Below are positions 60,016 to 64,000 of a stretch of 64,000 nt of DNA, piece after piece (within the stretch, counting starts at the first letter, position 1; each line of letters begins with the position of its first letter). The position numbers and the translations under genes are program-made. Location: assembly GCF_027988105.1 (NCBI RefSeq), contig NZ_JAQJZJ010000003.1, positions 62,001 through 126,000 of the forward strand, written 5' to 3'. The notes beneath the pieces are model-generated. The model did no database searches, was not told where the DNA came from, and saw only the letters and a list, made by a program, of their open reading frames with translations. Source of the stretch: Pseudomonas aestuarii. GTDB taxonomy: Bacteria > Pseudomonadota > Gammaproteobacteria > Pseudomonadales > Pseudomonadaceae.

Positions 60016-60359
60016 ATGCTCCAACGCCCGGATCACCTGATGCTGGCCGTTGACGACATTGCCCGCACGGTCGATATCTACCAGCGCGTGCTGGGCATGC
60101 GGCATGAGGTCTTTGGCCAAAACCGAAGTGTGCCGGTATTTGGACAGCAGTAATTCAACCTGCATCAGCATGGCAACGAGTTCTAAGCGCAAGCCAAATC
60201 ACGCGTTGGTCGATCGATGTGGTAATCGAGCACCAGACGCCGTACGGCCTGACTGTCGAGCAAGGACCAGTGGTGCGCACCGGTGCAACAGCTCCAATCG
60301 AGTCGGTGTACCTGCATGATCCAGCTGGCAACCTGATCGCAGTGAGCCATTATCTCTGA
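60016..60359 (+). pseudogene. Decayed VOC-family (glyoxalase-like) gene
   Basis: Begins with a good VOC N-terminus (MLQRPDHLMLAVDDIARTVD then YQRVLGMRHEVFG). The frame is broken by TAA at 60151-60153 (just after VFGQQ) and again after HQHGNEF. A frame change with loss of a central piece then leads to a recognisable C-terminus (VEQGPVVRTGATAPIESVYL then HDPAGNLIAVSHYL) ending at TGA 60357-60359. Two stops plus a frameshift and deletion show real decay, not a single sequencing error. It lies directly at the edge of the foreign AT-rich DNA. Confidence 0.88.
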
Positions 60360-60729
60360 GTAGCATCAAGCCAAGACAAGGAAAGAGTGGGCGGAACAGT
60401 ACCGCGAAGTAATGATATAAATTTTTCTGGCAATATAAATTATATATAAAACAGCAGGTTGGCGGACATATCTAGATTTTAAAGAAAGACTTTTTATAGT
60501 GCATGAGACAAAAGTTGCAAGCTGAGCAAGGAGGCGAAGGAACTAATTATGTAAATACAGGCGGTGTATTGGGATTGGCGGGGTGGTATATGCTGTCAAT
60601 CTAATTGTGAGACTTTGCATAAAAAATAATCGGTGCTACGCTCATTTGCCATGGACTAATTGGAATGCCCCAGCCATAAGGAATTGAGATAAGGATCAGC
60701 ATATCCACTACCTATAATGGGGGGTGGTT
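60360..60729. other. Putative transposon left end region with GGCGG repeats
   Basis: About 370 AT-rich bases without a gene. GGCGG occurs four times in this otherwise AT-rich stretch, at 60390, 60461, 60560 and 60577, each followed by A/T-rich or T/A-containing sequence (GGCGGAACAGT, GGCGGACATAT, GGCGGTGTATT, GGCGGGGTGGT). They may be transposase binding sites. A promoter for the tns genes must also be here. Confidence 0.4.
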
Positions 60730-61374
60730 ATGTCTGCGAAGAGTAGAACCGCATATTTCACAAAGCGCGGCTATCATTTTGGAAATTTATGGTCGGTTTA
60801 CAGTCTAAAGACTAACCAAGTCATTCAACTGGGTAGCGACAGACAGTTGGCCCACTGGCTTTTGTATTTAGAGTTTTCTCCGTCCGTTGTAAATTTTCGA
60901 TTTGATACAAGCAGTAAGACTCTCGCCAGTAATATGCTATCCAAACTAGACTATCACTTTGAGGTTATGCCTGTGGAAGGCATGCCTGAGCTCCACTATT
61001 TACGCACAGTAGGACACTCGATTAACTATATTGAGAAAGTGCAATCCGCTGCATTGATTAAGTATAAGTATATTGAGTTTAATGACGAAGATTGGCTTCC
61101 GCAAAAAGAAAAAATTCTTCCACTTTTAAAAGTATCGAACTTCTTGAACGGTGGGCGACATGTATATATTTCGCCTCAACTAAATGAGGATGCGGTCGGG
61201 TACGTTGTGAAAGCGCGAAAAGGTGCGCTGGGTGGGTACCTATCAAGCTTATGCGCTTTTGATTCAAATCTTTGTTTGCTCGTTTTCTGCAGAATGTATT
61301 CAGAGCGAAAAATAAACGTGGACTTTGAGTCCAATTTCTTTTCGCGCAATACATTGTGGTGGATAAATGAATAA
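60730..61374 (+). CDS. TnsA-like protein of the Tn7-like element
   Basis: A 214-residue protein placed where Tn7-type elements encode TnsA, the endonuclease that cuts the 5' ends. Residues 24-60 (YSLKTNQVIQLGSDRQLAHW then LLYLEFSPSVVNFRFDT) resemble the TnsA N-terminal region, and LDYHFEVMPVEG could supply an acidic residue. However the usual helix Glu appears as Asp and no clear Glu-x-Lys motif follows, so catalysis is uncertain. ATG at 60730 has a G-rich ribosome site; GTG at 60724 is an alternative. It overlaps the transposase gene by eight bases. Confidence 0.6.
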   Translation: MSAKSRTAYFTKRGYHFGNLWSVYSLKTNQVIQLGSDRQLAHWLLYLEFSPSVVNFRFDTSSKTLASNMLSKLDYHFEVMPVEGMPELHYLRTVGHSINYIEKVQSAALIKYKYIEFNDEDWLPQKEKILPLLKVSNFLNGGRHVYISPQLNEDAVGYVVKARKGALGGYLSSLCAFDSNLCLLVFCRMYSERKINVDFESNFFSRNTLWWINE

Positions 61375-63274
61375 GGCCATTTCTAAAGAACGCATAAGTT
61401 TCGTTGGTTATGAGGTGGTTGATACAACTCTTATGGATGAAAACAATAAAGAGGTTTTCATCCGGCGGAGAGAGGCAGTTAAGCTGCGCCTCGAGGGTAT
61501 TACCGGAGCAGAAATAAGGAAATTTACCGGAATTCCAGAATGCGAGCAAACTAGACTATTCAAAAGATATACGACTCTTAATGAAAAGGGTGTGTACTTA
61601 GGTGAGATCGGGTTAATTCCTTACTATCGAATTGAGCCATACAAAAGATTGAAGACACCGTCAATAAAACATACTGAGAGTCAGGGAGGGCTTGCAGGGG
61701 TTCTTGGCTACATTCTAGACAAGCATCCAAGGATAAAAGAGAGATTTGAATCGGAGGTACTTAGAAAAGAACCCAGGTTTGGGCAGGGTGGAAAGTTTAG
61801 TAAAAAGGGATTGTGCCAAGTATTCTATGATATCTGCAAGTCAGAAGGTGTTGCGGATGATGAGTGGCCGCTGAACCAGACAAGAGGGGCCCGTAAGACT
61901 ATTGGCAAGTATATCGATGCTATCCTACACAGCGATTTCACGCGGGCCGCACTTGTTAGTGGCGGCAGAATTGCGTTAACTCACAGCAAGGTCGGAACAG
62001 GAATATTTCCGCTGCTAGAGGACTTCGACGTTTATGATTTTATTGAGATTGATTCTTGGCACATGGATGCTTTCTTTGTCCTAAACATTAGTGGTGACAA
62101 ACGTGTCAAAACGAAAGACGTAATAAGCAAAATCTGGTTAATCGCGGCAGTTTGCAGGCGAAGTAATGCCGTATTGGCGATCAAATTTGTTTTCTCAAGC
62201 GAAATTAGATCGCAGGATTTGTACGATCTAATCTGTGAGGCTTATGCCGGGACGTGGTCACCTCGGACCACTTTCAATGTCCGAAATTTGAAATATTCCA
62301 TGTCAGCTGGGATGCCATGCTACTCAGTTCCGGAGTTACGGCATCATACTTGGGGGAGTGTGTGTCTAGACAATGCCATGCAGCATCATGCAACTAAGAT
62401 TTACGAACTGGCCCTCCATACTTTGGGCTTTGCGATAAATTTTGGCCCGTTGGAGCAGCCTGCACGCAGGCCAAAAGTTGAGGGTTTATTTAAAAGAATC
62501 GCTGCGAACGCAATCCACCAAATTGTTTCTACTACAGGGAGCAATCCTCACGATGGTCGAGTCGAGTCGCCTGAAGAAGCAGCTGTATATTATCAGGTTG
62601 ATGTAGATGATGCCTTGGAAGTAATGGATGTGCTTACTGCAAACTATAATGGAATTCCTCAAGGGGGGGTGAACAAAGCAAATAGCCCACTTGATGTGCT
62701 GCGAGCTTACTGTGCAGATAAGGATTTATTTCTACCGAAAAGTCACGAGATTTACCTAAATAGTATCCCTCTAGGATGTACCAGCACTCAGGCGCGGGTT
62801 ACAGGCAGTATAGCCAAAGGTATCAGGCCCAGAGTTAAACTAGATCAAGCCATTTATTCCTCTCCCGAACTGGCAAATTCATCGCATTTAATTGGAACTC
62901 GCCTACTTATACGTATTGACCCACATGATTATCGTACTGTGGAGGCTTACTTGCCTGAGGGTATCTACTTTGGGACTCTCACGGTTGACGCTGCATGGCG
63001 TAATATTAAGCATAGCGTCACGACTCGCCGGCTAGTTAATAGGGCGCAGTCCAAGAATGAGTTTGAAATAATGGAAGGTGAAAGCCCAATTCTAGCCTGG
63101 AAAAGGCACCTTAGACTTAACGCTAATGCTAAGAGTAATCGCGAGCTAGCACGACTCAGCAAGGAGGCGGAAAACAATGCAGAGCCTGAGCAGACTGAGT
63201 CGCCCATCGAAACACCAGACATGTCGTCTTCATATACATCTGAGAGATGGAAGAACCTAGATATACTTAAGTGA
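61367..63274 (+). CDS. DDE transposase, TnsB/TniA-like (Mu/rve integrase core)
   Basis: A 635-residue transposase that would bind the transposon ends and join 3' ends to target DNA. The N-terminal part has a helix-turn-helix-like stretch (RREAVKLRLEGITGAEIRKF). The retroviral-integrase-type core shows all three acidic residues: Asp229 (EIDSWHMDAF), Asp335 (SVCLDNAMQHHA) and Glu372 (RPKVEGLFKRI), with the usual short second spacing. A Mu-transposase-type C-terminal domain and an acidic, Ser/Glu-rich tail that could contact the ATPase follow. Codon usage and base composition differ from the host genes. Confidence 0.88.
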   Translation: MNKAISKERISFVGYEVVDTTLMDENNKEVFIRRREAVKLRLEGITGAEIRKFTGIPECEQTRLFKRYTTLNEKGVYLGEIGLIPYYRIEPYKRLKTPSIKHTESQGGLAGVLGYILDKHPRIKERFESEVLRKEPRFGQGGKFSKKGLCQVFYDICKSEGVADDEWPLNQTRGARKTIGKYIDAILHSDFTRAALVSGGRIALTHSKVGTGIFPLLEDFDVYDFIEIDSWHMDAFFVLNISGDKRVKTKDVISKIWLIAAVCRRSNAVLAIKFVFSSEIRSQDLYDLICEAYAGTWSPRTTFNVRNLKYSMSAGMPCYSVPELRHHTWGSVCLDNAMQHHATKIYELALHTLGFAINFGPLEQPARRPKVEGLFKRIAANAIHQIVSTTGSNPHDGRVESPEEAAVYYQVDVDDALEVMDVLTANYNGIPQGGVNKANSPLDVLRAYCADKDLFLPKSHEIYLNSIPLGCTSTQARVTGSIAKGIRPRVKLDQAIYSSPELANSSHLIGTRLLIRIDPHDYRTVEAYLPEGIYFGTLTVDAAWRNIKHSVTTRRLVNRAQSKNEFEIMEGESPILAWKRHLRLNANAKSNRELARLSKEAENNAEPEQTESPIETPDMSSSYTSERWKNLDILK

Positions 63275-63283
63275 GGAAAATAC

Positions 63284-64000
63284 ATGGATCACTCTAATGT
63301 CATATTTAGTAGCGACTTCAGACTGAAAACTCCACAGCTATTATCTGTTGTTCAGAATGTCTGTTTCAAGGTGTTGATGCGCAAAACTGGCGTGGTCTTC
63401 ACCGGGGAAGCTAGAATTGGGAAGACATCCTGCTGCGAAGCATTAGTTGAAGAGATTCCCAAGAGATTCCCTAATGTCTATGTTTTTATGATTCCAGCGA
63501 TTGGTGATAATTCAAATGACGAGCGCTATTCATCAATCATTCATCAGATGCTGGATTTGGAAAAAATTAAGCCCGGCTCTAGAGTTACTTTCGTACAGCG
63601 ACAATCGCTATTAGTTGAGCGTCTATTAATTAGAGCTGCCCAGGTAAATGCTCGGCAAATTGTTATGCTGATAGATGAGCTGCAAAGGCTTTCAGCTGCA
63701 GACTTTATCCAGCTGGCAGATTTATACAATAAGCTTAGATCTCAAAAGGTAACTCTTACTATCATATCTTTTGCTATGCCATCCATTGATAAAGCTGTTG
63801 TTCAGTTTCTTAAAGATAAATCTAGGAATATAATAGGAAGATTGTTGTCTGATATTCGGCCTATGTATGGGGTCACAAGCTTGACACAGCTAACATCTAT
63901 TTTGAAACTGTATGATGTGCCATCAAATTATGACGGCTCAGAAATATGCCATTGCAGCAATATTTTACCGAAAGCGTACTCGTGTGGCTTCCGGATATCT
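63284..64000 (+). CDS. Transposition ATPase, TnsC/TniB-like (3' end beyond window)
   Basis: An AAA ATPase open for 239 codons to the window edge. It starts MDHSNVIFSSDFRL at 63284 with an AGGAAA site, nine bases after the transposase. Walker A GEARIGKT is at residues 41-48 and Walker B IVMLIDELQRL has Asp131 and Glu132. The family assembles on target DNA and recruits the transposase. Proteins of this size class are called TniB or short TnsC; the C-terminus needed to tell them apart is missing. Confidence 0.85.
   Translation, partial: MDHSNVIFSSDFRLKTPQLLSVVQNVCFKVLMRKTGVVFTGEARIGKTSCCEALVEEIPKRFPNVYVFMIPAIGDNSNDERYSSIIHQMLDLEKIKPGSRVTFVQRQSLLVERLLIRAAQVNARQIVMLIDELQRLSAADFIQLADLYNKLRSQKVTLTIISFAMPSIDKAVVQFLKDKSRNIIGRLLSDIRPMYGVTSLTQLTSILKLYDVPSNYDGSEICHCSNILPKAYSCGFRIS

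What the first reader, a model, noticed from the sequence alone, without database searches (positions are those of the whole stretch)
60360..64000. AT-rich Tn7-like transposon entering the window beside a broken VOC gene
Three overlapping or closely spaced genes (TnsA-like, DDE transposase with D229/D335/E372, AAA ATPase with intact Walker motifs) sit in DNA with a base composition clearly unlike the host. Tn7-like elements often carry defence systems, guide-directed targeting or resistance genes, and the cargo begins beyond the window. The target next to gor and a TRIC gene is not one of the attachment sites I know (glmS, comM, parE, guaC, yciA).
Basis: partly seen in the sequence, partly recalled or inferred. 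Interest (0 to 1): 0.75.

Follow-up and report, generated by a model that had tools for sequence, protein, structure and literature searches.

The report
Tn7-like transposon with dead TnsA
A large jumping element of the Tn7 type in a Pseudomonas chromosome still carries the gene for the enzyme that normally cuts the element free, but the enzyme's cutting residues are gone, altered versions in relatives are still preserved by evolution, and an enzyme pair of the kind that separates fused copies sits beside it, so it probably copies itself instead of cutting and pasting.

Summary
The three genes are real; beyond the window tnsC is completed and a TniQ/TnsD-like gene follows: a Tn7-like TnsABCD operon. 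The left end is predicted at 60398, 38 bp past a VOC gene broken by its own stops, not by the insertion. One relative is mapped end to end (55 kb, 5-bp duplication, 12/12 inverted ends); for the own copy no right end was found in about 92 kb, so it may be stranded. No common attachment gene, CRISPR array or clear defence cargo was seen.
Unexpected: the own TnsA homologue has the Tn7 TnsA fold, but its catalytic positions are changed (E to Q, D to H, K to R or V). Of 29 homologues 20 lack the Lys; 6 are canonical, 3 uncertain. Altered TnsA is under purifying selection (dN/dS 0.08-0.25, six pairs). Near tnsD lies a divergent tyrosine recombinase and KfrA-domain pair with two inverted repeats between, the layout of TnpS/TnpT/rst cointegrate resolution; three relatives carry close TnpS/TnpT homologues. 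Best reading: replicative transposition with TnsA kept as a nuclease-dead subunit. Benler 2021 proposed tnsA loss plus resolvase gain; here the gene is retained. New variant of a known kind.

The parts
60016..60359 (+). VOC-family pseudogene (host), broken by internal stops and a frame change
   Evidence: three-frame translation against the G069 copy; homology to G069 ends at 60360
60398..60421 (+). predicted left end of the transposon, 326 bp before tnsA; the 5 bp before it are GGAAC
   Evidence: fits AGYRCYNNGAAGTAA, drawn from ends mapped in G129, G337, G023, G235, G335, with 0 mismatches; by similarity only
60724..61374 (+). tnsA homologue, 216 aa, Tn7 TnsA fold, catalytic positions changed (Q41 for E63, H78 for D114, R94 or V96 for K132)
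61367..63274 (+). tnsB, 635 aa DDE transposase (D229, D335, E372)
63284..64000 (+). tnsC, 310 aa AAA ATPase; runs 216 bp past the window edge (L002:5285-6217). The further parts (tnsD, tnpT remnant, int, two inverted repeats, kfrA, cargo) lie outside the window and are listed with L002 coordinates in the full report

Best explanation
This is the left part of a Tn7-like transposon with the operon tnsA-tnsB-tnsC-tnsD. TnsB, steered by TnsC and the TniQ-like protein, joins the 3' ends of the element to a target with a 5-bp duplication (the duplication is shown only in a relative). The own TnsA keeps its fold but lacks the residues that cut the 5' strands, so the element is probably not cut free; replication through the joined intermediate would give a cointegrate. 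The tyrosine recombinase with its divergent KfrA-domain partner, acting at the inverted repeats between them, would then resolve the cointegrate, as TnpS and TnpT do at rst in Tn4651. TnsA would remain as a structural or regulatory subunit. Shown here: gene content, fold, changed catalytic positions, purifying selection on altered TnsA of relatives, layout and conservation of the recombinase pair and its repeats, one complete relative with ends and duplication. Inferred: loss of nuclease activity, replicative mode, function of the pair, role of TnsA.
For: Fold: AlphaFold2 model pLDDT 85; the four Foldseek matches with E<=0.001 are three Tn7 TnsA chains (best E 3.9e-7) and a chain of the Tn7 TnsABCD transpososome; VIA-align Z 10.4 (transpososome), 10.0 and 9.9 (TnsA) against 8.2 for the best unrelated entry, which covers one domain; profile match to 1f1z E 0.005. 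Catalytic positions: E63, D114, K132 of Tn7 fall on Q41, H78 and V96 (R94 if the lysine is placed two residues earlier, as in the canonical members). Of 29 homologues, 6 have E, D and ExK (L082, L085, L087, L089, L090, L091), 3 are uncertain (L088, L092, L093: E and, in the Tn7 register, K, with D or E for the Asp), 20 have no Lys at either placement; half of these 20 belong to a distant group whose alignment to Tn7 is weak. The TnsB tree needs at least 3 changes between the 9 and the 20. Selection: dN/dS 0.08-0.25 in 6 pairs of altered TnsA, 0.09 and 0.17 in 2 uncertain pairs, 0.14 and 0.18 in 2 canonical pairs. Module: L081, L082 and L096 carry TnpS homologues 68-71% and TnpT homologues 60-71% identical to those of pWW0; the own Int matches TnpS at 24.6%, E 5e-14. 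Of 30 loci, 15 hold both genes of a pair, 9 one gene or fragments, 6 none. The one complete element, G023, has a TnpS/TnpT pair inside its borders. Int also lies near TniA/TniB genes in 5 of 16 other loci; transposons of that kind without TnsA are described in print as replicative and resolved by a recombinase (PMC11406308, passages).
Against: Of the 6 elements with canonical TnsA, 2 hold a full pair and 3 the recombinase, so the module does not track loss of the active site. Int is common without this TnsB: 31 of 46 genomes with Int, and 10 of 16 such loci showed neither Tns nor Tni genes in the 20 kb fetched. The own pair is far from Tn4651's: KfrA matches TnpT over 39 residues only. Five of the 6 selection pairs come from the distant group, pairs share members, and the own/L078 pair is saturated, so selection on the own TnsA was not measured. 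The complete element G023 has an uncertain, not clearly dead, TnsA. L095, with altered TnsA, has no pair in 20 kb (a TnpS relative of 54% lies about 24 kb beyond its tnsB). No right end or duplication was found for the own copy.
Confidence: 0.57

Rival explanations
1. The element still moves by cut-and-paste: 5' cutting is done by other residues of the altered TnsA or by another nuclease, and the recombinase pair is only cargo.
For: E89 and H91 stay nearly invariant in 13 aligned TnsA; elements with canonical TnsA carry the module too; Int occurs without Tns or Tni genes in 10 of 16 other loci; three members are compatible with an active site in the Tn7 register.
Against: E89/H91 stand beside an intact ExK in the six canonical members too, so they do not look like a replacement; the catalytic positions differ from member to member rather than settling on a new set; the recombinase is shared with TniA/TniB elements.
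Confidence: 0.22
2. Dead element: TnsA is simply decaying in immobile relics, the own copy among them.
For: No right end found for the own copy; tnpT remnant; IS66 and acetolactate-synthase remnants beside the cargo, read by eye.
Against: An open TnsA-sized ORF precedes tnsB in 29 of 30 loci and altered TnsA evolves under constraint in the 6 pairs measured; closely similar elements occupy different sites, among them G129 and G337, both with altered TnsA. The own copy itself may nevertheless be stranded.
Confidence: 0.13
3. The tyrosine recombinase pair is a target selector or an integrase of its own rather than a resolvase, as TnsF of Tn6022 is a co-opted inactive tyrosine recombinase.
For: Tn7-like elements have co-opted tyrosine-recombinase proteins as target selectors (PMC10293859, passages).
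Against: The own Int keeps the catalytic motif (by eye) whereas TnsF lacks the tyrosine site in that paper; the partner and the two inverted repeats between divergent genes match the rst layout described in PMC7157771 (passages).
Confidence: 0.08

Closest known systems
Tn7 (E. coli), TnsABCD
   Same: gene order tnsA-B-C-D, TnsA fold, DDE transposase, AAA regulator, zinc-motif TniQ/TnsD protein, 5-bp target duplication (in the G023 relative)
   Different: TnsA catalytic residues changed; the ends begin AG(T/C) rather than TGT (Tn7's ends recalled); no common attachment gene seen; recombinase pair next to tnsD
Tn7-like transposons of Benler 2021 with tyrosine resolvase and no detected tnsA
   Same: tyrosine resolvase linked to TnsB-type elements; replicative mode proposed there (PMC8649781, passages)
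   Different: a tnsA homologue is present here but altered; Pfam's TnsA model reached one of the members tried, weakly (L087, E 0.23), so such genes could be scored absent. Whether this family is their clade 2 was not tested
Tn5053/Tn402 TniABQ(R)
   Same: TnsB/TnsC/TniQ relatives with a separate resolvase; the same Int lies near TniA/TniB genes in 5 of 16 loci, with the KfrA partner in 2, a shortened one in 1 and none in 2
   Different: Tn5053 has no TnsA and a serine resolvase TniR (recalled)
Tn4651 TnpS/TnpT/rst
   Same: divergent tyrosine recombinase and KfrA_N-domain helper with inverted repeats between; close homologues in L081, L082, L096
   Different: Tn3-family transposase there (recalled and PMC7157771, passages); the own pair is only remotely similar in sequence

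Membership tests
Tn7-like transposon | TnsB-type DDE transposase | tested here: met
   D229/D335/E372 invariant in 12 sequences; profile matches TnsB structures, best E 5.7e-5
Tn7-like transposon | TnsC-type AAA ATPase | tested here: met
   AAA_22 E 2.8e-11; ShTnsC matched at E 0.001, ranked below several other AAA proteins; position in the operon
Tn7-like transposon | TniQ/TnsD protein | tested here: met
   profile A2 matches TniQ and TnsD structures, best E 4e-5; invariant Cys/His; the own single sequence has no Pfam TniQ match
Tn7-like transposon | TnsA fold | tested here: met
Tn7-like transposon, cut-and-paste type | TnsA catalytic residues | tested here: not met
   own: Q41, H78, and R94 or V96 in place of E63, D114, K132
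Tn7-like transposon | inverted ends and 5-bp target duplication | tested here: inconclusive
   met in G023; own left end by similarity only, own right end not found
Tn7-like transposon | fixed attachment site | tested here: inconclusive
   no common neighbour seen by eye in 20 relatives; target recognition itself not testable
CRISPR-associated transposon | Cas genes and CRISPR array | tested here: not met
   no direct repeats, no Rfam match in 14 kb from the left end; no Cas protein among the ORFs scanned, only weak helicase matches; DNA beyond that was not scanned
TnpS/TnpT resolution system | tyrosine recombinase with catalytic residues | tested here: met
   24.6% identity to TnpS, E 5e-14
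TnpS/TnpT resolution system | divergent helper protein | tested here: inconclusive
   divergent KfrA_N protein; pWW0 TnpT also has KfrA_N, E 2.6e-26, but similarity of the two is confined to 39 residues
TnpS/TnpT resolution system | two pairs of inverted repeats between the genes | tested here: met
   one of the two overlaps the start of int
TnpS/TnpT resolution system | resolves cointegrates | not testable with these tools
   needs an assay

The most novel reading that the evidence does not exclude
A family of Tn7-like transposons in Pseudomonas and Burkholderiales has several times turned TnsA into a selected, nuclease-dead subunit while holding tyrosine resolution modules, and so shows the passage from cut-and-paste to replicative transposition caught half way, with canonical, altered and lost TnsA side by side.
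Probability: 0.52. Interest if true: 0.68.

Novelty: new variant of a known kind. Interest (0 to 1): 0.55.

Why it matters
Tn7-like elements are sorted into cut-and-paste or replicative by whether a tnsA gene is detected. A TnsA that is present, under selection and nuclease-dead would mean that this sorting can mislead, that TnsA has a second, non-catalytic role that can be tested on its own, and that engineered Tn7-like tools can be compared with natural elements that separated the two roles. It also links the TnpS/TnpT-type module, known from Tn3-family elements, to TnsABCD and TniAB elements as an exchangeable part.

Tried and rejected
Own right end: comparison of the left end with 78 kb, a terminal-duplication scan and a generic scan of about 92 kb to the right of tnsA gave nothing; one search used an own position one base off and was repeated. 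The best inverted match (15 of 16 at 73412) was set aside as chance, without a test of its own.

Empty site: no relative examined had both flanks together. The right flank meets IS66 and acetolactate-synthase remnants at about 73970-74850 (read by eye), so the right end may have been lost there.

A genome-contig scan with TnsB confirmed no relative. The model of the TniQ-like protein was poor (pLDDT 60) and was not searched. Pfam and NCBIfam do not name the own TnsA or TniQ-like protein. The canonical TnsA set alone found no solved structure, nor did the distant set find TnsA; the distant set is tied to the family by profile comparison (probability 96). The left-end pattern searched in 9 genomes gave hits at about the level of the reversed control; the G023 right end was recognised.

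First count of 23 altered TnsA of 29 (label used, which then needed 2 changes) was corrected to 20 when both placements of the lysine were tabulated: L088, L092 and L093 became uncertain and the tree then needed 3 changes. The confidence of the best explanation (0.6 to 0.57), the odds of the novel case (0.55 to 0.52) and those of two rivals were changed for that reason.

The idea that the recombinase pair occurs only with altered TnsA was rejected (see evidence against). TnsF/Tsy-like and CRISPR-associated readings were considered and put low.

Literature on a natural nuclease-dead TnsA: in the listings I saw no title or abstract opening that reports it (one search listed 15 of 49 papers, 15 of 52). 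Only passages of PMC8649781, PMC11406308, PMC10293859, PMC3056050 and PMC7157771 were read. So it is 'not found in these searches', not 'not in print'.
Full report
WHAT IS THERE. Beyond the window edge tnsC is completed and a fourth gene follows, a 450-aa protein with the Cys/His set of TniQ/TnsD. Then come a tnpT remnant, a tyrosine recombinase on the minus strand, a divergent KfrA-domain gene and four cargo genes. From about 73970 (extended window coordinate) there are IS66 and acetolactate-synthase remnants (by eye) and then host genes, TetR and thiolase, also neighbours in G082.

PARTS OUTSIDE THE WINDOW (L002 = C3:120000-139999; extended window coordinate = L002 + 57999). tnsD/TniQ-like gene L002:6174-7526 +. 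tnpT remnant about 65539-66224 in extended coordinates, minus strand, two pieces of 173 and 56 residues 72-73% identical to the L096 TnpT homologue. int L002:8540-9718 -, 392 aa, Phage_integrase E 2e-16, catalytic R, HxxR, H and Y read by eye (set recalled). Inverted repeat TAATACGTT-C-AACGTATTA at extended 67706-67724, overlapping the start of int, and AGGTCGGATAAT-CTTTA-ATTATCAGACCT at extended 67747-67775, the proposed recombination core. kfrA L002:9797-10669 +, KfrA_N E 4e-22. Cargo L002:11480-15068 +: a 196-aa protein, a RadD/ResIII-like helicase, an Xre/ParS-type protein and an AAA_16 ATPase.

IT IS A TN7-LIKE ELEMENT. A search of 398 genomes of the genus found TnsB matches at E <= 0.001 in 35; 30 of these (own included) were studied, the five weakest were not. 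Plasmids gave 65 records with a match, all below 60% identity. Profiles of the four proteins match solved TnsA, TniQ/TnsD, TnsC and TnsB, TnsC least specifically. Groups of similar elements at different places gave left ends. In G023 the right end was found 55 kb away, with 12 of 12 (20 of 24) matching end bases and the target duplication ACAGG. The own left end, AGTACCGCGAAGTAA at 60398, fits the same pattern. No right end was found for the other elements in the stretches held.

TARGET. The upstream neighbours of 20 relatives are of many kinds, with L080 and L084 sharing a kinase-like gene at different distances (by eye). Three closely similar elements (G190, G193, G057) differ in the 40 bp before the left end; G193 and G057 share a 650-bp piece (79%) further out and run on together to the right to the end of the data, so those two may lie in related neighbourhoods. 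What the TniQ-like protein recognises is unknown.

TnsA. The 216-aa protein has no significant Pfam or NCBIfam match, but its model is a Tn7 TnsA. One of 30 loci (L136) gave no TnsA ORF. tabulates 29 homologues against Tn7 E63, D114, Q130xK132. Six have E, D and ExK two residues earlier than Tn7's QxK. Three (L088, L092, L093) keep E and a Lys in the Tn7 register, with D or E for the Asp, and are uncertain. Twenty have no Lys at either placement; ten of these belong to a distant group joined by profile comparison and poorly aligned with Tn7. The own protein has Q, H and R or V. Six of the 65 plasmid records were read (by eye): canonical in Klebsiella grimontii, Glu to Gln in Azonexus, altered in Burkholderia vietnamiensis and Janthinobacterium, no such ORF found before tnsB in Cupriavidus necator pBB2 and Polaromonas. 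Altered TnsA is under purifying selection: dN/dS 0.08-0.25 in 6 pairs (5 from the distant group, some sharing members), 0.09 and 0.17 in 2 uncertain pairs, 0.14 and 0.18 in 2 canonical pairs, 0.06-0.18 for TnsB of the same ten pairs; the own/L078 pair is saturated. The TnsB tree needs at least 3 changes between the 9 that keep the residues and the 20 that do not. Since Tn7 shares the active site, loss is the likely direction, but long branches make parts of the tree unsure.

THE RECOMBINASE PAIR. L081, L082 and L096 carry close homologues of TnpS and TnpT of pWW0, the cointegrate resolution pair of Tn4651 (PMC7157771, passages; the pWW0 genes bear the products 'site-specific integrase' and 'DNA-binding protein', and I took them for tnpS and tnpT by position and layout, names recalled). 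The own element has a remnant of such a tnpT and an intact, remotely similar pair. Of 30 loci (20 kb or less each, own 44 kb) 15 hold both genes, 9 one gene or fragments, 6 none; of the six, L085 and L086 are cut by contig ends, L085 has only a distant recombinase upstream, and G023 (L092) has its pair further inside the element. G235 and G335 show none in 59.7 and 29.4 kb. Of 15 of these 30 genomes with Int at E <= 1e-30, 13 have it within 12 kb of tnsB, one only a fragment there, one has it on another contig. Of nine TnpS hits with 82% identity or more, eight lie within 12 kb of tnsB and one on another contig. Over 398 genomes Int (E <= 1e-60) is in 15 of the 35 with TnsB and in 31 of the other 363 (the samples are taken to be the same by their handles). 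Of these 31, 16 loci were read: 5 have TniA and TniB genes near by, 1 another Tns set, 10 neither. Of 25 loci tried, 21 gave an alignable region before kfrA: GGATAA-N7-TTATCA is in all 21, the second repeat in 20, not in L080, which has no Int. In the own 78 bp the better repeat is equalled by 1 of 1000 shuffles.

READING. Benler and co-workers argued that Tn7-like transposons became replicative by losing tnsA and gaining a resolvase (PMC8649781, passages). Here the gene has not been lost: it is kept and, by its residues, dead in 20 of 29 relatives. The simplest account is that a resolution module made 5' cutting dispensable while TnsA kept a role in the complex. That the module also accompanies canonical TnsA fits gain of the module first, but it also means that the module alone does not prove the mode. 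The own copy lacks a visible right end and may no longer move.

Noticed in passing
L036:15407-16777: In relative G069 an unrelated 456-aa tyrosine recombinase gene follows directly after the same VOC gene, so this position has been used by another mobile element.
   Followed up: no
[quoted passage not shown]
   Followed up: partly
L139, L141, L143, L144, L153: The same recombinase, with its KfrA partner in the first three (shortened in L143), lies near TniA/TniB genes, which suggests an exchangeable module across Tni and Tns elements.
   Followed up: partly
L089:5228-6253, L085:5335-6339, L087, L090, L091: Elements with canonical TnsA (five of the six) have an extra tyrosine-recombinase-like gene divergent from tnsA, inside the left end in the G190, G193 and G057 elements.
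   Followed up: no
60660-60723 of the window and L078:6490-6545: A stretch of about 60 bp before tnsA is strongly conserved between the own element and G244, possibly a regulatory or TnsB-binding region.
   Followed up: no
L002:11480-13467: A 196-aa protein plus RadD/ResIII-like helicase form a cargo pair shared with G266 at 81% identity, in the opposite orientation relative to tns; function unknown.
   Followed up: partly
L157:8914-18220: Cupriavidus necator pBB2 has two tandem three-gene sets that look like tnsB-tnsC-tniQ, and no tnsA ORF was found before either.
   Followed up: no
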